Shown here: positions 46,703 through 60,215 of the stretch, piece by piece
How positions within the stretch are numbered: position 1 is the first letter of the stretch
Layout of the letters: the number at the start of each line of letters is the position of its first letter
From: a virus
Reading direction: 5' to 3' (one strand)
DNA length: 64,000 bases
Virus record (IMG/VR): IMGVR_UViG_3300029787_005452
Coordinates: 121,198 to 185,197 of that record
Position numbers and translations under genes: made by a program
The notes under the pieces: generated by a model
Told to the model about the DNA's origin: nothing
What the model saw: the letters and a program-made list of their open reading frames with translations, nothing else
The model's database searches: none

Positions 46703-49700
46703 TTATAATATTGTTTGCAACCAAGCTGCTACTCTACCACTAGTCATAGCAGTATCACCATCTTTATTAGTTCTAAAGTTAATTATATCATTTTCATCAA
46801 ATGTAATATTTGAAGATGTAACATCAGTTACTTGAGATTTTTTAGCATCAGTATCAGCTAACCCACTAGTTATTATACCTTTTGCGCCAGTTGCAACACC
46901 ATTTTTGTATACCTCTATCTCAATGTCATCAGCCATTGTACCACTGTTTATTTCTGCATTAACAGATATTTTTAATAGCTTAGATTTAAATGCTATTGGT
47001 ATACCATGTGCTGCTGGTGTTAAATCTCCATTACCGAAGGACCATTCGTGGCTACCGTCAGTTAAATCTTCTGCTTCCTCAGCCCATATAGAATATATTG
47101 AACCGTATACTGCTGATAAAGATAAAATCGAACCAGTAGCTGATAAATTACCTTGCACACTAACATTTTCAGAATATAAAGTATTAGGTTGACTACCTGA
47201 TAAAGCATTACCAACAATAAATGATTTATCAGCTGCTACTGATAGTTCATTATGACTGCCTCCTAATATACCACTATCATTTGAATTTATTATATTCTTC
47301 ATACCACCGCCTATAAACGTTGCAGAACCTGATGCGGTATTTGAAAATCCACCGCCTATAAACGATGCAGCACTTAGAGAGCAATTAGCTTGACCTCCAC
47401 CTATAAATGAATTAATAGATTTATTACAAATTTTATTATAAGTACCCCCTGCAATTGCTGATCTGGTTGCACCTGTAAAAATTTGATTTTCATTTCCTCC
47501 TGCAATAACACTTGTATTTCCTCTTGCTTTATTTAGACGACCACCACCTACGGTAGAATACTCACCAATAGCTAAACCATAATATCCACCTGCAACAGTA
47601 GTCGCGCATGCACATGCATGATTTTGATAGCCTCCTCCAACAGTTGAATATTCCGCTGCAGTCCGGTTTGAATTGCCTCCTCCAATAGTATTTTCATCAC
47701 CTGCAGCACAGTTAAAATTACCCCCACCAATAGTTGAACGATTACCGGAGGAACAATTTTTAAACCCCCCTCCAATAGTAGCATAAGCTCCGGTAATTAA
47801 ATTTTTATAACCACCGGCTATAGTTGTATTAGTTCCTTTTGCTTCATTAATAAAACCTCCCCCAACAAATGAACGACCACCTGAAGCTTTAGAGCTAAAA
47901 CCACCAACTAATGTTGAATATTCACCTGAAGTTAAGTTTTTAGTACCACCTGCTATAGTATTTACTTTACCAGAAGCTTCGTTAAGTGTACCACCACCTA
48001 TAAATGATGCTGAACCTGAAGCAGTATTACTAAATCCTCCACCGATAACATCACCTGAACTTAAAGTACTATTTAAATTACCTCCTCCGATAAAAGCACA
48101 AGTTGATTTATTTAAAACTTCATTATTTTTACCACCCGCAATTGATGAAAAATTACTATTACGGAAAACAAAATTTTGATTACCACTACCTACAAAAGAA
48201 TAATCGCCGAGAGCTTTGTTTAGTAAACCACCGACTATAACTGATTTTTCTGAGAGTGCTAGATTATTTACACCACTACCTACGAATGAATAACCTCCAC
48301 ATGCACAATTCTGATAACCTCCTGCAATACTACCTCCTGTACCGTTTACGCAATGCCTAGTACCACCACCTATAAATGTATAATCTTGAGATGACTTATT
48401 TAACGTACCTCCAGCAATTGTAGCATACATACCATTAACACAATTAGTGTGACCTCCACCCACGGTGTTGTATTGACCTAAATTGCAATTAGCAAATCCA
48501 CCGGCAATGGTTCCAAATTCATCATTAACATGATTCCTACCTCCTCCACCTATAGTTGAACACGCTCCTTTAGCACAATGACACATACCTCCCCCAACAA
48601 ATGATCTTATACCTTCAGCTTTAGAACTAAAGCCTCCTACTACTGTTGAATAATTACCTGAAGCATCATTTTTAGAACCTCCACCTATAATTGATGCTTT
48701 ACCTGAAGCAGTATTAAATAAACCACCGCCAATAACTGATCCTGAACCTGATGTAGTATTACTAAATCCTCCTGCAATAACCTCTAATGCACTTAAAGAT
48801 ATATTACTTTTACCTCCAAGTACTGAAGAACATCCACCTTGGCTACAAACTTTATTAATTGAACCTAAAACTACACTGTACGTACCATGTGCTTGACCAC
48901 CAGTACCAACAAATGAATTACCCCCTATTGCACAAGCAGCGAAACCAGAACCTACAAAACTTTGATTTCCTATTGCTTTATTAAGTCCCCCGGAGCCAAC
49001 AAATGAATAATTACCTACTGCACAGTTAGTGGTACCTCCAGCAACAACACTGTTATTTCCAGTAGCTTTGTTCGTATTACCACCAGCAACAGTAGACGAG
49101 TTACCAGTAGCAAAATTAGAAGTTCCTCCACCTACAGCAGCAGTACTACAAGATGTATTATTAGCACCTCCAGCTACTACTGAGTTTGCAGCAGCAGCAA
49201 CATTATTTTGACCACCACCAATAAATGAATTTTGACCATTTGCTCTATTATTAAAACCACCTGCAACAGTCGAAGCTAAAGTTCCTGCAGCACTATTATT
49301 GCAACCACCTCCCACAACACCAAAATTTTCAAGAGTAGTATTACTTAAACCACCAGTTACAGTAGATGCTAAACCTGAGGATTGGTTAAATACACCTGCT
49401 CCAATGAATGCTCCTGAACCTGATGAAGTATTGGTAAGACCTCCTACAACAGCTCCATGTGCACTTAAAGATATGTTATTTTGACCTGTACCTATAAATG
49501 AATAGCTACCAGGAGCTTCGATTGTATTATTTTTACCACCAAGTATACCTGAATTAGTAGCTTTAGCACAATTTTTAAATTGACTGGTACTATGACCTCC
49601 ACCGACGACAGTTGAAAAAGCTCCTGTAGCATAATTATAACCTCCTCCAACGACAATTGAATTGCCACCAGAAGCTTTATTGACAAAGCCTCCAACTACT

Positions 49701-51589
49701 ACAGAACAAGTACCAACAGCACAACTATTAAAACCACCTCCTACAGTTGAACATGCGCCGGAAGCCTTATTTACATAACCACCAACGACAACTGAATGAT
49801 TACCAACAGCACAACTATTAAAACCACCTCCTATAAATGAACATACGCCGCAAGCTTTACTCAGGACACCGCCGACTGCAACTGAAAAATTACCTATTGA
49901 TTGTACCTGGTAACCGCCTCCGACAAAGCTACAATTACCACTAGCTGTATTACAATTCCCTCCTCCTATAGCTGAATTATTAGCAGTTGCTTTATTATTA
50001 ACACCTCCTCCTATTCTAGATTGATCACCACTTGCGCAATTGCCAATACCTCCTCCAACTGAAGCCCAATTAGCAACTGCTGAAACTCCTTCTCCAAAAG
50101 CAGTACTCGCAACTCCAGTTGATTTAGATAAAGAACCTCCAGCTATTGAATAATTGCCTGTTGCGCAATTATTGTTACCACCTACGATGCTTGCACAATT
50201 ACCTGATGCTGTATTGCATAAACCACCAGCTACGGTAGATTTTTTACCAGAAGCGATATTTTGAGAACCTCCTCCTATAAACGATGCTGAGCCTGATGCT
50301 GTGTTACTATAACCCCCTCCAACAACTGAATGTATACCTGAGGCAGAACTACCTTTATTATAACCTCCACCACCTCCAACAGTTGAAAAAGCTCCTGTAG
50401 CATAATTACTTTGACCTCCACCAACAAATGAAGAACCACCAATTGCTCGATTATTATTACCAGCACCAACAAATGAAACATTCCCTGAAGCTCTATTACC
50501 ACTACCTCCTCCTACAGTAGCACCGGGTACGGTGGCGCAATTATAGTATCCTCCTCCTACTACTGAGTATGAACCGGTAGCACAATTATTTAAACCTCCT
50601 CCTATTACTGAGTCAGTACTGGTAATTTTATTTAAACAACCACCACCTATAAAAGAACCACCCGCAGCACTATTACCTACACCTCCAATAATTTTATTTG
50701 CTGATAAACTTACTGCTGATAAACCATTTACAACAATTGGTATTCCTCCAGGTCCAACTAACCCAGTGGTAAATATATCTCCAGTTGCAGATATATTACC
50801 TACTACAGTAAGCTTTTCATTAGCAGATAAAGTACCTATTCCTATACGACCCATATCATCAATTACAACATCATCTCCATTTACGTCTATAAAGTGTGCT
50901 ATTGGTTGGCTTCCATTTTGCTGTACATATAAAGCAGGTCCTGTACCATCATTAGTAACACTTAAAGAAGAAGTAGTTGTTGTAACTGTGTTAAAGATTA
51001 CTTCATCCCCTAATACTGATAAGTTTTGAGTAACGAGAAAATCAGTAACTTCAATTGTAGGTGAAGAAAATTTACTCATTACCGATAAATTATCTACATA
51101 AGTAAAATCTGGAATTGCAGTTTGTACACCTGAACCTCCTATTATAACTGTACCACTATGGCTTATTGTATTAGAGCAACCACCAATCATAACACTATTA
51201 CAATTATCAGGATCACAATTATCAATTAAATTGCTATTACCACCAATAATAACTGAATTTTCAGCACAATTAAAATTATTAACACCTCCAGCAACTAGTG
51301 AATTACTTTTTTCCACTCTATTCAAATTGCCACCTACAATAGTACCATACGTACCAGATGCATAATTAGACGACCCTCCAATGACAGAAGCTTGGGTACC
51401 CGGGTTTTGATTGGAATGTGGGTTGGTAAGTATTGTACTAGCTGATAAATCCGCCATGTTTAGTGTACCTAACACTGCAGTAGATAGTGAAGTTTTTCTT
51501 GTTGTTCCGTTCTCAACTATCGGTATTACTTGAGAACCGTTTTGAGATAATGAACAAGTAAGGTTAGAAATTTTAATACCAGTGGACAT
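46703..51589 (-). CDS. Giant YadA-head-like tail fibre, 1628 aa
   Basis: Residues 1-45 (ISNLTCSLSQNGSQVIPIVE then NGTTRKTSL) fit the shared anchor-like module. Residues about 60-160 and 300-1490 are dozens of repeats of 13-17 residues built on (S/T)-x-(V/I)-x-GG(G)-x-x-N-x-A-x-G, the left-handed parallel beta-roll motif of YadA-like adhesin heads. Between them (about 165-290) lies a stem segment. The last 130 residues form a different C-terminal domain. About 45 Cys occur, mostly in N-C-A-x-G positions. Such a trimeric roll would be a long, stiff receptor-binding fibre. It has its own late box. Confidence 0.85.
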   Translation of the reverse strand: MSTGIKISNLTCSLSQNGSQVIPIVENGTTRKTSLSTAVLGTLNMADLSASTILTNPHSNQNPGTQASVIGGSSNYASGTYGTIVGGNLNRVEKSNSLVAGGVNNFNCAENSVIIGGNSNLIDNCDPDNCNSVMIGGCSNTISHSGTVIIGGSGVQTAIPDFTYVDNLSVMSKFSSPTIEVTDFLVTQNLSVLGDEVIFNTVTTTTSSLSVTNDGTGPALYVQQNGSQPIAHFIDVNGDDVVIDDMGRIGIGTLSANEKLTVVGNISATGDIFTTGLVGPGGIPIVVNGLSAVSLSANKIIGGVGNSAAGGSFIGGGCLNKITSTDSVIGGGLNNCATGSYSVVGGGYYNCATVPGATVGGGSGNRASGNVSFVGAGNNNRAIGGSSFVGGGQSNYATGAFSTVGGGGGYNKGSSASGIHSVVGGGYSNTASGSASFIGGGSQNIASGKKSTVAGGLCNTASGNCASIVGGNNNCATGNYSIAGGSLSKSTGVASTAFGEGVSAVANWASVGGGIGNCASGDQSRIGGGVNNKATANNSAIGGGNCNTASGNCSFVGGGYQVQSIGNFSVAVGGVLSKACGVCSFIGGGFNSCAVGNHSVVVGGYVNKASGACSTVGGGFNSCAVGTCSVVVGGFVNKASGGNSIVVGGGYNYATGAFSTVVGGGHSTSQFKNCAKATNSGILGGKNNTIEAPGSYSFIGTGQNNISLSAHGAVVGGLTNTSSGSGAFIGAGVFNQSSGLASTVTGGLSNTTLENFGVVGGGCNNSAAGTLASTVAGGFNNRANGQNSFIGGGQNNVAAAANSVVAGGANNTSCSTAAVGGGTSNFATGNSSTVAGGNTNKATGNNSVVAGGTTNCAVGNYSFVGSGGLNKAIGNQSFVGSGFAACAIGGNSFVGTGGQAHGTYSVVLGSINKVCSQGGCSSVLGGKSNISLSALEVIAGGFSNTTSGSGSVIGGGLFNTASGKASIIGGGSKNDASGNYSTVVGGFSSKAEGIRSFVGGGMCHCAKGACSTIGGGGRNHVNDEFGTIAGGFANCNLGQYNTVGGGHTNCVNGMYATIAGGTLNKSSQDYTFIGGGTRHCVNGTGGSIAGGYQNCACGGYSFVGSGVNNLALSEKSVIVGGLLNKALGDYSFVGSGNQNFVFRNSNFSSIAGGKNNEVLNKSTCAFIGGGNLNSTLSSGDVIGGGFSNTASGSASFIGGGTLNEASGKVNTIAGGTKNLTSGEYSTLVGGFSSKASGGRSFVGGGFINEAKGTNTTIAGGYKNLITGAYATIGGGFKNCSSGNRSTIGGGNFNCAAGDENTIGGGNSNRTAAEYSTVGGGYQNHACACATTVAGGYYGLAIGEYSTVGGGRLNKARGNTSVIAGGNENQIFTGATRSAIAGGTYNKICNKSINSFIGGGQANCSLSAASFIGGGFSNTASGSATFIGGGMKNIINSNDSGILGGSHNELSVAADKSFIVGNALSGSQPNTLYSENVSVQGNLSATGSILSLSAVYGSIYSIWAEEAEDLTDGSHEWSFGNGDLTPAAHGIPIAFKSKLLKISVNAEINSGTMADDIEIEVYKNGVATGAKGIITSGLADTDAKKSQVTDVTSSNITFDENDIINFRTNKDGDTAMTSGRVAAWLQTIL
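47225..50700 (-). repeat. YadA-like coding repeat array with ~0.7 kb superrepeat
   Basis: Short repeats of about 40-50 bases encode the GGG-x-x-N motif. On top of these, a longer unit recurs: the boundary encoding N-x-S-L-S-(A/S) followed by GG-x-(S/T)-NT-x-SGS occurs near 47370, 48057, 48789 and 49461. Intervals are about 690, 730 and 670 bases, so blocks of about 230 residues were duplicated in tandem. Confidence 0.75.
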
Positions 51590-52482: not shown

Positions 52483-53388
52483 ATGAACCTAAATTATACA
52501 AATACTAACTTCAAGACAGTAAGTGATATCGAGATACCCGATATCTTCTACCGCAGATATAAAAGCGGTATTTCAGTAATGGATGAACTATTCGGTGAAG
52601 GTATACTTCCTGGTAGTTCAGTAACGATGTGTGCAGCAGCTGGCTGTGGTAAAACTACTCTTCTTCTTCAGTTACTAGAAGGTTTGAGCAAGAATGGTTA
52701 TAACGTTGGTTATTCTTCTGGTGAAGAAAATACCTATCAGTTGGCTTTTACTTGCAATCGTATCGGTGTTAAAAAGGTAGCAGTTGCTAATATGACTGAT
52801 ATTGATGAGCTTGTCGATGCGATGGATGATCTAGATGCTCTTGTAGTAGATAGCTTTCAGGCTCTAACTACTAAGAAGAAGATGAATAGTAGAGCTCTTG
52901 AAAAGTATGCTGTAAGTAAGCTTACTAGAGCTGCAAAAGATAAAGAGTGTACTGTATTCTTTATCATGCATCTTACTAAAGATGGTAAGTTAAAGGGTGG
53001 TACTATTGTACCTCATACCGTTGATGTTAATATGAATATCGAAATTGATGGAGATATCGATGATAATGCTCGTAAGATCTTCTTTACTAAGAATCGTTTT
53101 GGTCCTTTAAATGAGTTAACTCTATTTATCGGAGCTCATGGTTATGATTTTAATACTCCTGTGGTAGTTGAGACCGAAACTAAAGCTAAAAGTAAGAAGA
53201 GTAAGAAGAAAGAAGAGCTTGAGAAAATTTTAGATATGAAAGAGCCGCCTCTAATAAATTGCGATCGAGTAATGGGTACCTTAGGTATTGATTATATGAG
53301 AGCTAGTTACTTACTTAGAGACTTAGTCAATAATAGTAAGATGGCCAAGTACGGTAAAGGTAAGACTGCTATCTATAAGTTAATTTAG
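52483..53388 (+). CDS. RadA/Sms-like recombination ATPase
   Basis: The RecA-fold core reads GILPGSSVTMCAAAGCGKTT (Walker A, K57), NVGYSSGEENTYQLAF (RadA VLYVSGEES-x-x-Q), LVVDSFQAL (Walker B) and FFIMHLTKDGKLKGG (RadA HVTKDG-x-x-G). TKNRFGPLNEL carries the KNRFG motif (203-207), diagnostic of RadA. RadA drives branch migration of recombination intermediates. The usual N-terminal four-Cys zinc finger and C-terminal Lon-like domain are absent. After a Lys-rich linker the C-terminal 60 residues look like a winged helix (VMGTLGIDYMRASYLLRDLV). Codon choice is visibly richer in C and G than in the fibre genes. Confidence 0.82.
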   Translation: MNLNYTNTNFKTVSDIEIPDIFYRRYKSGISVMDELFGEGILPGSSVTMCAAAGCGKTTLLLQLLEGLSKNGYNVGYSSGEENTYQLAFTCNRIGVKKVAVANMTDIDELVDAMDDLDALVVDSFQALTTKKKMNSRALEKYAVSKLTRAAKDKECTVFFIMHLTKDGKLKGGTIVPHTVDVNMNIEIDGDIDDNARKIFFTKNRFGPLNELTLFIGAHGYDFNTPVVVETETKAKSKKSKKKEELEKILDMKEPPLINCDRVMGTLGIDYMRASYLLRDLVNNSKMAKYGKGKTAIYKLI

Positions 53389-53424
53389 GTTCATGCTGAC
53401 CTAGGCAAGTCTATAAACTGCCTA
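53386..53424. terminator. Weak hairpin pair at convergent junction
   Basis: TAGGT/ACCTA (53386-53403) and TAGGCA/TGCCTA (53402-53424) can form two short stems between the convergent RadA-like and protease-like genes. There is no T-tract, so termination is doubtful. Confidence 0.25.
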
Positions 53425-55353
53425 ATCTAATTGAACGGCTGAAAGTTGATAGCCTTCTCTACCTAAAGCTTCCATTCCATCTATTATACGATCATGGAAA
53501 CCTTTTGTACTATAAGCAGGACCTAAGCCTTGGCTTTCATATAATTTCTTAAACCCAAAGTGACTTGGATCGAGATACTGAGCAGAGAACGATTGAGAAG
53601 GAGACAAGAAACTAGTACTAAGGAAAGTAATTGATAAAAGTAATTCATTATTATGTACAATAAATGATGGACTGCTACTATCACCATTGGCTAGCTTCAT
53701 CTGCGGAAAGCCTAATTTTTTATTTTCAAATATTGAAGAAACACCCATAAGAGATGTATAACCTACTGCAACACTACCACTACCTGACAATGGAGCTCCG
53801 TTGGATGGGAATATTGTCGAACCTAATGCAGCAAATTCATCCCCGTCACTGTATGAAAAACTGCCAGTAAACTCAGGATTTCTTAATTTACCTAAACTGT
53901 AGTTACCTGCTTGAGTAAGGGTTGGAAATCTTTTAGGTCTTTGAACTTCATTATCAAATAAGGGTAATTTATAAGTTTTAACTTTACCTCCGGCGTCCGG
54001 TCGACCGGCTTCAGCAGTTATATCATTACTTAACTTAATTAAGTTAGCATCATTTCCTAAATTAAGTTCTCCCACCACTGTAGCAGAAACAATTTTATTT
54101 TCAGTAGTTAAAAATCTAGCAGTAGAACCAGGGTTAGTAGCACCTCCAAAATGCGTATTAGAAAGACCAAACTTACCATTTATTAAAGTTATATTATTAT
54201 CACCTCTTAAAGATATACCTGTAAGGTCATATATATCTCTATATGGATATAAATACCATGCTGTATTATAATTAGCAGAGTTTGTATTTCTATCATTAAC
54301 GTACCTATATTTGGTTCTTATTGCTTCATTAGTTGCGTTATCTAATGCATCACTATAATGCAAATTAGCATCGGGTCTAAAAAATTCTTCTTGATAAAAT
54401 AAACTCTGTGACGGAAATCTTAATGATCCTCTATACTCAGGAGTATCTTCTAACATAACTCCTGATAATGTTTGATATTCATCTAAAGGATTAGAAAGAG
54501 ATGATACTGTAGTCCATACTGTATGTATGCTATTAGCTCTTGATTCTTCATAAGGAGCTGCACTTATATCAATAACATAACTTTTTGTACTAGTATAAAG
54601 ACCTTCTATATCAGTTCTATTTGTAGAGAAAGTTATTGTATAAGTATCGTTTGCTGATAAATCATTGATAGGAACAGTCATTCGCCTGCTTGTTTGTGAT
54701 AAGTTTGCTTGCTCTAAAGTATCAAAAGATTTAAAATTTGTTTCAATATTAAAGTTATCACCAACATTAAAATTTACAAAATCTCCTAATAATCTTCCAT
54801 TCTCATGTATTGCAGATATTTCAATAGTAAAAGAAGTCGTATCGAAACTTCCGGTAAATCCAGTCGTATCTGTAGATAAATTTACCTGTAAATTACTAAA
54901 GTCGTAAGAAGTTAATACAACTGATTGGGTCTCTATATCACTATTATAATTAAAAAACTTTCTATCAAAAGTTAACTCTCCCACATCATTAATAGTATCG
55001 TTAAAATTAATACTTTTTTGTATAAACGTGTTATTAATAAAATATAAACTATCAAAAAGATAATCTGTAGATGTAATAAATCTATATTTACTATAAAATT
55101 CTAATAAAGGGTAATCTATAAATTTTCTTGCGTTAATAAAATCTAATTGATTCCCATTTGCCCCTAATTCATCTCCAGTTGCAACATAATTATTATCTAT
55201 ACTCAAAAAATTAAAAGTAAAGTCAGGTACAGTTAAAGATGGAGTTCCGATTTTAAGTGGAATTGAGCTACCTAATAAAATTTTATTTCTTTGTTGAGAG
55301 TTATATAAATTCCTAGCCCTCTTTAAGTCGTTAAATGTTGGAGGGTTACTCAT
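53422..55353 (-). CDS. Virion protein with probable trypsin-like (S1) protease domain, 643 aa
   Basis: The N-terminal half is beta-rich with Ig-like stretches (TYTITFSTNRTD). The C-terminal half has the order of a chymotrypsin-fold protease: ITLINGKFGLSNTHFGG with H401, LGNDANLIKLSND with D435 (compare DIALLKL), and NGDSSSPSFIVHNNELLLSI with S559 (compare GDSGGP-x-x-x-x-x-G-x-L). Family spacing is H to D about 45 and D to S about 93; here 34 and 124, so the loops differ. S560 and S561 replace the two Gly after the nucleophile. The start follows the upstream fibre stop by one base. A virion protease or a catalytically dead binding domain are both possible. Confidence 0.65.
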   Translation of the reverse strand: MSNPPTFNDLKRARNLYNSQQRNKILLGSSIPLKIGTPSLTVPDFTFNFLSIDNNYVATGDELGANGNQLDFINARKFIDYPLLEFYSKYRFITSTDYLFDSLYFINNTFIQKSINFNDTINDVGELTFDRKFFNYNSDIETQSVVLTSYDFSNLQVNLSTDTTGFTGSFDTTSFTIEISAIHENGRLLGDFVNFNVGDNFNIETNFKSFDTLEQANLSQTSRRMTVPINDLSANDTYTITFSTNRTDIEGLYTSTKSYVIDISAAPYEESRANSIHTVWTTVSSLSNPLDEYQTLSGVMLEDTPEYRGSLRFPSQSLFYQEEFFRPDANLHYSDALDNATNEAIRTKYRYVNDRNTNSANYNTAWYLYPYRDIYDLTGISLRGDNNITLINGKFGLSNTHFGGATNPGSTARFLTTENKIVSATVVGELNLGNDANLIKLSNDITAEAGRPDAGGKVKTYKLPLFDNEVQRPKRFPTLTQAGNYSLGKLRNPEFTGSFSYSDGDEFAALGSTIFPSNGAPLSGSGSVAVGYTSLMGVSSIFENKKLGFPQMKLANGDSSSPSFIVHNNELLLSITFLSTSFLSPSQSFSAQYLDPSHFGFKKLYESQGLGPAYSTKGFHDRIIDGMEALGREGYQLSAVQLD

Positions 55354-55354
55354 T

Positions 55355-56326
55355 TTATGAAAGACCTGTTATAATACCATCTGTAATAACCATTGATTTA
55401 TCACCTGCGTTACTTGATATTGTAACTGTTCCTGTAAAACCATTACCTGCATGTATGGAGCATGTTGCGCTTAATTTATTAACGAATGTTGTACAATCAC
55501 CACACCCTTTTATACCAGTTCCTATTATAAAAGAATTATTACCAGATAAACCATTATTTAATCCTCCTAAAATACCACCGTTACTTCCGGATAAAATAGA
55601 ATTACTACTTCCTCCAACGATAATATTTCTTTCTCCTGAAGTTATATTATTACCTAGACCTGTACCTATAAAACTACAACTTGAGCTTAAAACTTGATTA
55701 AACGACCCGGCACCAATAAATGAATCACCTGACCGTCTTATGATATTAATCATCCCTGAGCCAATAACTGTTCCAGTATTATCACAACTAAAATTTGTAC
55801 CAGCTAAAATAATATTGCAACTAGATGCAATATTAGATTGTAAAATGGAAGCACTATCCCCTCCTAATATTATATTATTTTTATTACCTGGAGTGTTTAT
55901 AGTATTAGAAAGACCCCCCAATAAAGATCCACAACCAGCACATATTTTATTATTTTGCCCATTTAAAATTGTAGAAAATTTATTGTTATTATTACAACCT
56001 GCTATTAAATGACATCTTCCGCCTATAATTGTACCATAACCAATACTTAAATTATTATTATCTAAGCCGTTTAATACGGTATTAAATATACTACTAGTAG
56101 CGGAATTATTACAGCCTTGTACAACAACACCAAAGCTACTTAAAGCTTTATTGTTACACCCCGCTAAAACTATAGCTTGGGTCCCATTAGTTTCTGAATT
56201 TTCTCCTCCTCCTGATATTGCTGAAACAGGAAGACGTTTAGTCGTACCACATTGATTAACAGGAATAACTTCTGAACCTGATAATTTATCAGCTTCAGTT
56301 AAATTTAATAATGAAACGATTGCCAT
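55355..56326 (-). CDS. Small YadA-like tail fibre with shared anchor module, 323 aa
   Basis: The first 45 residues (LLNLTEADKLSGSEVIPVNQ then CGTTKRLPVSAI) are the clearest copy of the shared anchor-like module. Residues about 45-275 are beta-roll repeats with I-x-GG/I-G-(A/S/T)-G and N-x-x motifs (TIIGGRCHLIAGCNNNN), rich in Cys and Asn. A short C-terminal domain ends in GDKSMVITDGIITGLS. It forms an operon with the protease-like protein, led by a late box. Confidence 0.78.
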   Translation of the reverse strand: MAIVSLLNLTEADKLSGSEVIPVNQCGTTKRLPVSAISGGGENSETNGTQAIVLAGCNNKALSSFGVVVQGCNNSATSSIFNTVLNGLDNNNLSIGYGTIIGGRCHLIAGCNNNNKFSTILNGQNNKICAGCGSLLGGLSNTINTPGNKNNIILGGDSASILQSNIASSCNIILAGTNFSCDNTGTVIGSGMINIIRRSGDSFIGAGSFNQVLSSSCSFIGTGLGNNITSGERNIIVGGSSNSILSGSNGGILGGLNNGLSGNNSFIIGTGIKGCGDCTTFVNKLSATCSIHAGNGFTGTVTISSNAGDKSMVITDGIITGLS

Positions 56327-56660: not shown

Positions 56661-57662
56661 ATGCATAATATAACAGAAAGAGATGCTCAAGTAGGATTGA
56701 GCCAAGCATGGCACGGTTTAACCGATGTCGTTGATGAAATCGACGTTAGTGATAACGTCTTGACTAAATGGGATGTAGAGCGTAAGCCTCTTACATACGT
56801 TGATGTAGATGGTAATGAACAAGAGACAGGATATGGGATCTTAGTTGGTTCAGATGATGATAAAATTATCGGACGTCCTATGACCCCTTCTTATAAAGCT
56901 ATTAGTAATGAGAAGTTTTTAGATCTCGTTAGTGATGCTATGAATAAGCTACCTAAGGCTAAAATTGAATCTATTGGTTCAGTTTGTAATCGAGGTAAAG
57001 TATTCGTAACTGTAAGCTTGGATGGTAAGAGCAATTATAAAGTAGGTGATAGAGAGTTTAAAGACTATCTTAACTTTGGAAATGCTCATGATCAATCTTC
57101 TAAGCTCTGGATCAATAATACCAATACATGTACCGTATGTGATAATACGTTTACATATAACTTAAATGATAAGTCAGCCATGGTTGGTAGTGCTGTTCAT
57201 AGAGGTGATATTGAACTTAAACTTGCTGATCTATCTAATGTAGTGGATGACTTCTTAGGTACTCAAGCAGACTTCCGTCAGAAGTTTAATAGCCTTCTTA
57301 AGAAGAAGATTTCTGATAAGAAAGCCCAGTCATTATTTACTGGATTCTTAATGCGTAATAATCCTAAAGAAGGACTTAGTACACGCTGTTTAAATACAGT
57401 AGATAGCTTGAATACTTTGTTTAAGCGAGGTGCCGGTAACCGAGGTGAGAACTACGCAGATGCATTCTCAGCAGTAACTGACTATTATACGCATAATAGT
57501 ACCCGTGGTAAAGGTAAGAATCGTCTTAACCAATACGTATCATCTGAGTTTGGTTTAGGTCGTATGAATAAGCAAAGTTTCTGGACTGTTATTAATAACG
57601 ACGATCTTGCTAATCGTACTATAGAGAGAGGTACTAAACTTCTTTCTTTGGTAAATCAGTAA
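56661..57662 (+). CDS. DUF932 family protein (phage/plasmid-like, TIGR03299 type)
   Basis: The 333-residue protein has the usual DUF932 features: an N-terminal AWHGLTDVV region, MTPSYKAISNEKFLDLVSDA, GKVFVTVSLDGKSNYKVGDR, LNFGNAHDQSSKLWINNTNT and a C-terminal RGENYADAFSAVTDYYTHNS region. The family is common in phages and plasmids. It has no established biochemical activity that I know of. The gene has an early-type promoter and a leader of about 40 bases, so it is one of few genes here with a conventional untranslated region. Codon use is richer in C than in fibre genes. Confidence 0.82.
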   Translation: MHNITERDAQVGLSQAWHGLTDVVDEIDVSDNVLTKWDVERKPLTYVDVDGNEQETGYGILVGSDDDKIIGRPMTPSYKAISNEKFLDLVSDAMNKLPKAKIESIGSVCNRGKVFVTVSLDGKSNYKVGDREFKDYLNFGNAHDQSSKLWINNTNTCTVCDNTFTYNLNDKSAMVGSAVHRGDIELKLADLSNVVDDFLGTQADFRQKFNSLLKKKISDKKAQSLFTGFLMRNNPKEGLSTRCLNTVDSLNTLFKRGAGNRGENYADAFSAVTDYYTHNSTRGKGKNRLNQYVSSEFGLGRMNKQSFWTVINNDDLANRTIERGTKLLSLVNQ

Positions 57663-58238: not shown

Positions 58239-60215
58239 ATGCCTAATAGTTACAGTTTCAATAGTTATGGAGATGTACAAGTATTATTTTCTATAACTAA
58301 TAACCTTGATGATGTAAAGAAAGATTCTGTAAAACCATTTTCTTTTATCGAGTTTATAGATAATTCTAGACAAACTCAGAAAGATAACAACACTATAAAT
58401 TTATATAAAATTTATTTACAAAATTGGAATCAACTTAATAATAAATCTAATATTGAAAGCAGTAATATTGTTAAAGAACAATTTATAAATCTTTTTAAAG
58501 AAATAACATTAAAGTTCACATCTCCAGAAGAAAAAAGATATTTACAAAATATAGATTTTTCAAATGAAGAAAATATTTCTATTGCTGTACCTTTTTTCTC
58601 TAGCAAAATTAAAGAAATAATTTTATATTATCAAGAAAGACGTAAAACTCATACAAAAGATTTAAAAGAAATTAAATCAAAAGGTAATAAGACTAACGTG
58701 TCGAATTATATTAAAAGTAAATTACTTGATTTTTTTGAAAATAATGAGAGTGAAGATGTTGAAACAGTAGCGCAAAAATTATCTTCTATACAAAAGTTTG
58801 TTGAAGTAGATATAGAAGATAGTTACGATATATACAATGACTATTTTGATATAGACCCATCTAAGCCACCTGATTTTTATGCTGGAAGTGATACATTTAC
58901 ATTACCAAATATTAAATTTTTAGAAGAAATACCAAAGACTACTACAACTACAACTACTACACCAGAACCTTTACCTGTAATTGATCCATTACCTCCAGTA
59001 TTAGATTTTAAGTCTATTAGTATTACTAACGACGTAGTTGTAATTGCAGGTCAAGAAAACCTTCCCCCAGTCATAACTGAAGCAACTGAAGTGAATATAT
59101 TCTTTGATTCATCTGGCTCAATGAATTCTACATTAGCTCCTTTACAGACTATGAGAGATACTATACTAGATGCTGCCTTAATGCCATTCTATAATAATAA
59201 TAGAGCTCTTTATGAAGAAAAAGTTAACGTAATTGTAGATCCTTCTGAGCGGACCTTTTTAATGTTAGCTACTGCTAATACAAATCCTGCTGCTGATGTA
59301 TTAAATATTGTATTCCAAGATGAATCAACTCCATACGGGAATGAGTCGAGTTATTTAACCCCTACATCAACTTATTTATCTGATATAGTTGGAGCCAGAT
59401 CTAATCTTATTAATAGAACTAATAATAGATATGTTGTATTTCAAGTCGAAACCGACCCCTCTGGTTACTCACCGGCATTTGCGGCATTCTTAGCAGCAGT
59501 AGAAAATGGTACTGGTAGTTATGCTGGTAGTAATGGTTTAAGTCTAACCCCTTATAAAGAAAGAGTAAAATTTGCATTCAGTATTACTCCAGCATCAACA
59601 CCGATCTATTATGCTAACTTAATAGTTGGTGAAATGCAAAACTTTAATTTTGATATACCAGATCTACCGAATTTTATAATTGGACCTATTAACGATGTTG
59701 AAGTAAATGCAAGTATTGCAATAGGGCTTAATTTAAGTCAAAGTAATAATATTGAACTTAACGAGGCAGGTACAATATTTAAATTAATTGAAAATGAAAA
59801 TGATGTAACTGTTATCCAATCGACTAGTATAGGTATTAAAGAAATATCCAACAATAATAATATAAATGTTAACCAATCAACTACTTTCGGTGTTAATGAA
59901 ATATCCAATACAAATGGTATTAGTGTGTATTCATCAATTGATTCTACAAAACTTATATCCAATATAAATGGTATTAGTGTGTATTCATCAATTGATCTAG
60001 TAAATAACATATCCAATTCAAATAGTATTGGTGTTAATCAATCAATTGATCAAGTAAATAACATAGCTAATACAAATAGTATTAGTGTTAATCAATCAAT
60101 TGATCAAGTAAATAACATATCCAATTCAAATAGTATTGGTGTAAATTCATCAATTGATAATCTAGTAAATAACATAGCTAATTCAAATAGTATTAGTGTT
60201 AATGCTGCTGCTTAA
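58239..60215 (+). CDS. Virion protein with von Willebrand A (MIDAS) domain and C-terminal repeats
   Basis: Residues 1-220 are an Asn/Lys-rich helical region. A threonine run and Pro-rich linker (about 240-260) precede a domain that begins VNIFFDSSGSMNSTLAPL. Here D290-x-S292-x-S294 is the DxSxS metal-adhesion (MIDAS) motif of VWA domains, and RYVVFQVETDP plus VKFAFSIT are likely later strands. The last 110 residues are about six 18-residue repeats (N-x-IS/A-N-x-N-x-I-x-V-x-x-SID-x-V). The late promoter marks it as structural. A metal-dependent adhesin on the virion is the simplest reading. Confidence 0.7.
   Translation: MPNSYSFNSYGDVQVLFSITNNLDDVKKDSVKPFSFIEFIDNSRQTQKDNNTINLYKIYLQNWNQLNNKSNIESSNIVKEQFINLFKEITLKFTSPEEKRYLQNIDFSNEENISIAVPFFSSKIKEIILYYQERRKTHTKDLKEIKSKGNKTNVSNYIKSKLLDFFENNESEDVETVAQKLSSIQKFVEVDIEDSYDIYNDYFDIDPSKPPDFYAGSDTFTLPNIKFLEEIPKTTTTTTTTPEPLPVIDPLPPVLDFKSISITNDVVVIAGQENLPPVITEATEVNIFFDSSGSMNSTLAPLQTMRDTILDAALMPFYNNNRALYEEKVNVIVDPSERTFLMLATANTNPAADVLNIVFQDESTPYGNESSYLTPTSTYLSDIVGARSNLINRTNNRYVVFQVETDPSGYSPAFAAFLAAVENGTGSYAGSNGLSLTPYKERVKFAFSITPASTPIYYANLIVGEMQNFNFDIPDLPNFIIGPINDVEVNASIAIGLNLSQSNNIELNEAGTIFKLIENENDVTVIQSTSIGIKEISNNNNINVNQSTTFGVNEISNTNGISVYSSIDSTKLISNINGISVYSSIDLVNNISNSNSIGVNQSIDQVNNIANTNSISVNQSIDQVNNISNSNSIGVNSSIDNLVNNIANSNSISVNAAA
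59880..60202 (+). repeat. 54-base coding repeats at the 3' end of the VWA gene
   Basis: Units encoding NNI(S/A)N(S/T)NSI(G/S)VNQSIDQV repeat with an 18-residue period. Adjacent copies near 60000-60150 are nearly identical in DNA, so duplication is recent. Confidence 0.8.

What the first reader, a model, noticed from the sequence alone, without database searches (positions are those of the whole stretch)
53422..55353. Probable trypsin-like protease triad inside a virion protein
H401 in SNTHFGG, D435 in NDANLIKL and S559 in GDSSSPSF lie in the correct order and local context for a chymotrypsin-fold protease. The strand after the Ser (FIVHNNELLLSI) also fits. The GDSSSP variant and longer D-to-S loop are unusual. 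Co-operonic with a YadA-like fibre, it could cleave a host surface protein, process virion fibres, or be an inactive binding module.
Basis: partly seen in the sequence, partly recalled or inferred. Interest (0 to 1): 0.75.

Follow-up and report, generated by a model that had tools for sequence, protein, structure and literature searches.

The report
Serine protease on a phage fibre
A bacteria-infecting virus carries, next to the gene for one of its attachment fibres, a protein whose end is very probably a working trypsin-like protein-cutting enzyme from a family not in the reference databases, which hints that some phages cut surface proteins when they attach to a cell.

Summary
The 643-aa ORF (53422-55353, minus strand) has H401, D435 and S559 where stated. 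No Pfam, PHROGs, PDB-sequence or GenBank-phage match exists. I recovered eight relatives of the C-terminal domain from uncultured T4-like phages, including a second copy in this phage's own genome. The nine sequences are 18-58% identical to the window protein. Only 11 alignment columns are invariant; they include H401, D435 and G-D-S559-x-x-P. Two relatives carry canonical GDSGGP. A profile comparison with HtrA proteases puts D435 on the HtrA catalytic Asp (0 of 100 column shuffles score as high), and a weaker alignment puts S559 on the catalytic Ser. Foldseek on a low-confidence model ranks trypsin, plasmin and chymotrypsin first. So this is a divergent PA-clan (chymotrypsin-fold) serine peptidase family, probably active. 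The protein lies directly downstream of a YadA-like fibre gene in five loci. The fibre+protease pair is 52-61% identical between two phages whose flanking genes are 83-97% identical, and it is absent at the same site in a third. Best reading: a virion-displayed endopeptidase acting on host surface proteins. Fold and triad are well supported; virion location and target are inferred.

The parts
53422..55353 (-). 643-aa fibre-linked protein with C-terminal trypsin-like (PA-clan) peptidase domain
   Evidence: ORF; homologues
54484..55353 (-). N-terminal part (about residues 1-290), conserved only in the fibre-linked homologues (opening motif M-x-x-PPTxxDLxR); proposed docking region to the fibre or virion
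   Evidence: alignments A1 and A4; N-termini; function inferred
53425..54273 (-). C-terminal peptidase domain (residues 361-643)
   Evidence: A10 alignment; profile match to HtrA; Foldseek
54151..54153 (-). codon of H401, catalytic His (SNTHF)
54049..54051 (-). codon of D435, catalytic Asp (GNDANLIKL); aligned by profile comparison to the HtrA catalytic Asp
53677..53679 (-). codon of S559, catalytic Ser (GDSSSPSF); G557 is the expected oxyanion-hole glycine
55355..56326 (-). 323-aa YadA-head-repeat-like fibre gene, 1 base upstream of the protease gene; same gene pair in the homologues
52483..53388 (+). flanking conserved ATPase (DnaB/Sak4-like), left border of the cassette site
56661..57662 (+). 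flanking conserved 333-aa gene, right border of the cassette site; 97% identical in G002, 74% in G029

Best explanation
The C-terminal ~280 residues are a chymotrypsin-fold (PA-clan) serine endopeptidase with triad H401-D435-S559, belonging to a phage family absent from the reference databases. The N-terminal part docks the enzyme to the trimeric YadA-like fibre encoded just upstream (or to the baseplate), so it is carried on the outside of the virion near the fibre tip. During adsorption it most likely cleaves a protein on the host surface, clearing or irreversibly modifying the receptor layer, as tailspike depolymerases do for polysaccharides. Shown: ORF, triad conservation, gene pairing, cassette turnover. 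Supported but not proved: PA-clan fold and catalytic activity. Inferred: virion incorporation, docking, host-surface substrate. Step estimates: PA-clan fold with intact triad 0.9; active protease 0.8; virion-borne 0.75; host-surface substrate 0.5.
For: Triad and GDSxxP invariant in nine sequences 18-58% identical to the window protein, with only 11 invariant columns in all. Canonical GDSGGP in two relatives and GDSGNP in the same-genome paralogue. Local profile alignment to 36 HtrA sequences puts D435 on the HtrA Asp (P 0.026; 0 of 100 column shuffles and not the reversed profile reach the score); a weaker third alignment puts GDSSSPSF on GNSGGALL. Template-free model with strands flanking H, D and S; Foldseek top four in the PDB are trypsin, plasmin, chymotrypsin, trypsin. 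Same fibre-then-protease order in the window, G002, G031, G049 and the paralogue, plus a protein cut by its contig end before the domain. Related domain directly after gp25/gp6 baseplate wedge genes and two large proteins in two phages, and in large 1055-aa and ~1900-aa proteins. The pair diverges to 52-61% identity while flanking genes stay at 83-97%, and it is missing at the same site in G029, the pattern expected of host-recognition genes. Purifying selection: dN/dS about 0.25-0.45.
Against: No significant sequence match to any known protease: Pfam Trypsin and Trypsin_2 do not match these genomes at E up to 10, although the controls do. The structure model is low confidence, Foldseek's best PDB E-value is 0.013, and Foldseek scores amino acids as well as shape. 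No virion proteomics or cleavage data. Substrate and host unknown. S560 in place of the usual Gly after the catalytic Ser could lower activity.
Confidence: 0.55

Rival explanations
1. It is an active PA-clan protease, but its substrate is viral: it trims itself, the neighbouring fibre or another tail protein during assembly, in the manner of self-cleaving fibre chaperones.
For: Fixed pairing with the fibre gene in five loci, with gaps of 1-12 bases; the domain sits inside large multidomain virion-like proteins where self-release would be possible.
Against: The domain is attached to unrelated partners (fibre-linked, baseplate-operon, a 1055-aa protein, a ~1900-aa protein), which does not suit one fibre substrate. 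The domain is C-terminal in most members, so release of an N-terminal product is not required.
Confidence: 0.25
2. A catalytically dead protease fold used as a binding module of the adhesin.
For: Phages reuse enzyme folds for binding; Ser replaces Gly after the catalytic Ser in several members (GDSSSP, GDSSGP, GDSSRP).
Against: All three catalytic residues and the GDSxxP frame survive in all nine members, when almost nothing else does; a binding-only module would be expected to lose them in some lineages.
Confidence: 0.12
3. The resemblance is chance and the protein is an ordinary structural protein with no protease fold.
For: No database family match; low-confidence model.
Against: Independent recurrence of GDSGGP, H and D in distant relatives; profile match in register with HtrA Asp and Ser; unbiased Foldseek top hits.
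Confidence: 0.05

Closest known systems
PA-clan serine peptidases: family S1 (chymotrypsin/trypsin) and HtrA/DegP (S1C; Pfam Trypsin_2 PF13365, Trypsin PF00089)
   Same: Order H-D-S, spacing H-D 34 and D-S 92-129 in the family, GDSxxP around Ser, HtrA-like 'xAtvvg...D-a-x-x-L-k' strand around Asp, strand after Ser; weak profile and fold match.
   Different: No significant HMM hit to PF13365 or PF00089; long, variable loop between D and S; no PDZ domain, and no signal peptide or membrane anchor recognised by eye (no signal-peptide predictor was run); fused to a fibre-associated phage protein.
Trypsin-like serine protease of T4-like Sinorhizobium phage phiM9 (AKE44730.1)
   Same: A trypsin-like domain in a cultured T4-like phage, mentioned in PMC10783043.
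   Different: 230-aa stand-alone HtrA-type protein that does match PF13365 (E 5.5e-12), located next to gp23, no fibre partner, with a hydrophobic N-terminus; not matched by the profile of this family.
Tip adhesins downstream of trimeric fibres (T-even gp38 type)
   Same: Separate gene immediately downstream of a fibre gene, fast evolving; comparison from general knowledge.
   Different: gp38 is a non-enzymatic Gly-rich adhesin; this protein carries a protease triad. Location at the fibre tip is not shown.
Virion-associated depolymerases, including the poly-gamma-glutamate peptidase of Bacillus phage PhiNIT1 (reviewed in PMC5380687)
   Same: Works-like analogy: phage enzyme attacking a surface polymer.
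   Different: Different enzyme class and, here, presumably protein substrates; no sequence comparison was made.

Membership tests
PA-clan (chymotrypsin-fold) serine peptidase | Catalytic residues in order His-Asp-Ser | tested here: met
   H401-D435-S559 present and invariant in nine sequences
PA-clan (chymotrypsin-fold) serine peptidase | Gly two residues before Ser (oxyanion hole) and GxSxxP-like frame | tested here: met
   G557, D558, S559, P562 invariant; GDSGGP in L106 and L108
PA-clan (chymotrypsin-fold) serine peptidase | Double beta-barrel with the triad in the cleft | tested here: inconclusive
   Model mean pLDDT 36; strands around H and D and around S; best PDB hits are trypsins and HtrA but E 0.013 at best
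Pfam Trypsin PF00089 / Trypsin_2 PF13365 | HMM score above the curated cut-off | tested here: not met
   No match at E up to 10 in six phage records, controls positive
HtrA (S1C) | Profile similarity around Asp and Ser | tested here: inconclusive
   hhalign score 22.1, P 0.026, 0 of 100 shuffles as high, Asp in register; Ser in register at lower score
HtrA (S1C) | C-terminal PDZ domain | tested here: not met
   Protein ends about 84 residues after S559; no PDZ match in Pfam
PA-clan (chymotrypsin-fold) serine peptidase | Proteolytic activity lost on Ser mutation | not testable with these tools
   needs bench assay
Virion tail-fibre-associated protein | Gene pairing with a fibre gene across phages | tested here: met
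   Window, L086, L087, L090, L102; L091 is N-terminal only because the contig ends
Virion tail-fibre-associated protein | Presence in purified virions | not testable with these tools
   no proteomics available

The most novel reading that the evidence does not exclude
A previously unrecognised family of virion-displayed chymotrypsin-fold proteases, spread by domain shuffling among fibres, baseplate and other tail proteins of uncultured T4-like phages, acts as 'protein depolymerases': swappable enzymes that cut host surface proteins during adsorption and help set host range.
Probability: 0.45. Interest if true: 0.8.

Novelty: new variant of a known kind. Interest (0 to 1): 0.6.

Why it matters
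Virion enzymes of phages are mostly known to attack sugars and cell wall. In the sources searched I found no trypsin-like protease family tied to fibres. If active, it predicts that uncultured T4-like phages, probably aquatic, cleave surface proteins during adsorption, gives a testable role to a set of unannotated structural proteins, and supplies a profile (A10) with which to find more.

Tried and rejected
Direct searches with the single protein failed everywhere: Pfam, PHROGs, PDB, GenBank phages, IMG/VR. Single-sequence AlphaFold2 was useless (pLDDT 30). A six-sequence alignment improved the first barrel only. hhalign with three Deg sequences gave nothing; it worked only after both sides were deepened. 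The pattern scan of 84,980 prokaryote genomes gave 36 loci; the three best-scoring were inspected and are chance matches without a GDS motif, and none of the rest scored better than E 0.17. Cultured Pelagibacter phages and cyanophages (nine records with one Pseudoalteromonas phage) carry no detectable member. A late-promoter scan for TATAAATA gave fewer hits than chance. The idea that the GDSSSP variant signals an inactive protein was rejected as the lead because distant members keep the whole triad and some have GDSGGP.

Full report
WHAT WAS CHECKED. The ORF at 53422-55353 (minus) is 643 aa and contains H401, D435 and S559 in the stated motifs. It follows a 323-aa YadA-head-repeat-like fibre gene (55355-56326, minus) after one base. 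The window is bases 121198-185197 of a 185,197-base virus record, G000. Terminase, sheath and gp6 wedge match T4-like PHROGs. The nearest cultured phages by terminase are only about 33-38% identical: T4-like phages of Pelagibacter, rhizobia, Pseudoalteromonas and Synechococcus. The host is unknown; an aquatic setting is an inference.

NO DIRECT MATCH. Pfam, PHROGs, PDB sequences and GenBank phages give no credible hit for the protein. Pfam Trypsin and Trypsin_2, searched directly against this genome and five related records, do not ring at E up to 10, although control genomes do.

RELATIVES. IMG/VR phages related by terminase yielded a 61%-identical full-length homologue (G002) and a 34%-identical one (G031; the two regions found were 42% and 32% identical in the search), plus an N-terminal fragment at a contig end (G016). 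A profile search added G049 and a second copy in this phage's own genome (L102:6837-9026, 729 aa, GDSGNP), again directly behind a fibre gene. Pattern searches added two baseplate-operon versions with GDSGGP (L106, L108), whose operon begins with gp25 and gp6. Profiles then found versions inside ~1900-aa proteins of the same two phages (GDSSGP) and at the C-terminus of a 1055-aa protein of G029 (GDSSRP).

TRIAD CONSERVATION. In the nine-sequence alignment A10 (18-58% identity to the window) only 11 columns are invariant: L, H401, G, F, D435, G557, D558, S559, P562, L, V. H-D spacing is 33-38 in seven of nine and longer in two with insertions (56 and 88); D-S spacing is 92-129. One caveat: L108 was picked with a pattern that includes the His codon, so its His is not independent; Asp and Ser are. 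L106 was first found with a pattern that lacks the catalytic His.

FOLD. A local profile-profile comparison with 36 HtrA sequences aligns 'ARFLTTENKIVSATVVGELNLGNDANLIKLS' with the HtrA strand that ends in the catalytic Asp, Asp on Asp (score 22.1, P 0.026; reversed profile 15.6; maximum of 100 column shuffles 19.5). A third, weaker alignment puts 'GDSSSPSFIVHNNELLLSITF' on the HtrA 'GNSGGALLNLNGELIGINTA'. AlphaFold2 on six sequences is low confidence overall (pLDDT 35.8), about 50-68 over residues 31-90 of the 283-residue domain. Its best Foldseek hits among 350,542 PDB chains are trypsin, plasmin, chymotrypsin and trypsin, with HtrA2 following. No hit passes E 0.001 and Foldseek also scores amino acids, so this supports but does not prove the fold. 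In the viral library the best hit is an uncharacterised uncultured-phage protein, E 8e-4.

HOW IT PROBABLY WORKS. The N-terminal part is shared only among fibre-linked members (opening motif M-x-x-PPTxxDLxR), while baseplate-operon members have a different N-terminus; the simplest reading is docking part plus protease (inference). Between the window phage and G002 the protease is 61% and the fibre 52% identical, while four flanking genes are 93% (ATPase), 97%, 97% and 83% and a fifth small one 87%. In G029 the same two border genes (ATPase and the 333-aa gene) are 124 bases apart with no cassette. Other copies sit beside DNA polymerase/recombinase genes, terminase, or the tail-hub region. This turnover is typical of host-recognition genes and points to a host-facing substrate. 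Selection on the sequence is purifying. I therefore favour a virion-displayed endopeptidase acting on a host surface protein, with virion self-processing as the main rival.

WHAT IS KNOWN. Sinorhizobium phage phiM9 has a trypsin-like protein (AKE44730.1; PMC10783043), but it is a stand-alone 230-aa HtrA-type protein that does match PF13365 and is not matched by this family's profile. A phage peptidase acting on a poly-gamma-glutamate capsule is reviewed in PMC5380687. Literature searches found no fibre-linked trypsin-like family, but the library is partial.

LIMITS. No experiment, no virion proteomics, no confident structure, only nine members (several from the same phages), and no host. The record ends are unverified, so genome-wide absence claims are not made.

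Noticed in passing
L102:6837-9026 (G000:C1:28836-31025): The same phage carries a second, 26%-identical protease-type protein (729 aa, GDSGNP) directly behind another YadA-like fibre gene, outside the window.
   Followed up: yes
L164:6404-7072 and L165:4102-4770: Proteins of ~1900 aa with long TSTSTST linkers and Cys-rich repeats, each carrying a divergent member of the protease domain (SKHW, VDIS/ADIS, GDSSGP).
   Followed up: partly
window 46703-51589: A 1628-aa YadA-repeat fibre; the allele in phage G002 is only 915 aa, so the repeat stalk varies strongly in length between close relatives.
   Followed up: partly
window 53398-53424; L169 10440-10482 (minus): A short element ('GGCAAGTCTATAAACTGCC'-like, imperfect inverted repeat) after the ATPase gene is kept in G029, where the cassette is absent.
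   Followed up: no
L090, L091, L092 just upstream of the protease start: TATAAATATAATAAAATG, resembling a T4 late promoter, lies between fibre stop and protease start; not present in the window copy.
   Followed up: no
window 58239-60215: 658-aa protein with a TTTTTTT linker and a C-terminal series of near-identical 'NSNSIGVNxSID' repeats; repeat number differs in G002 (641 aa).
   Followed up: no
KP881232.1 59457-60149 (phage phiM9): A HtrA-type trypsin-like gene lies next to the major head gene on the opposite strand, a separate acquisition of a PA-clan protease by a T4-like phage.
   Followed up: partly
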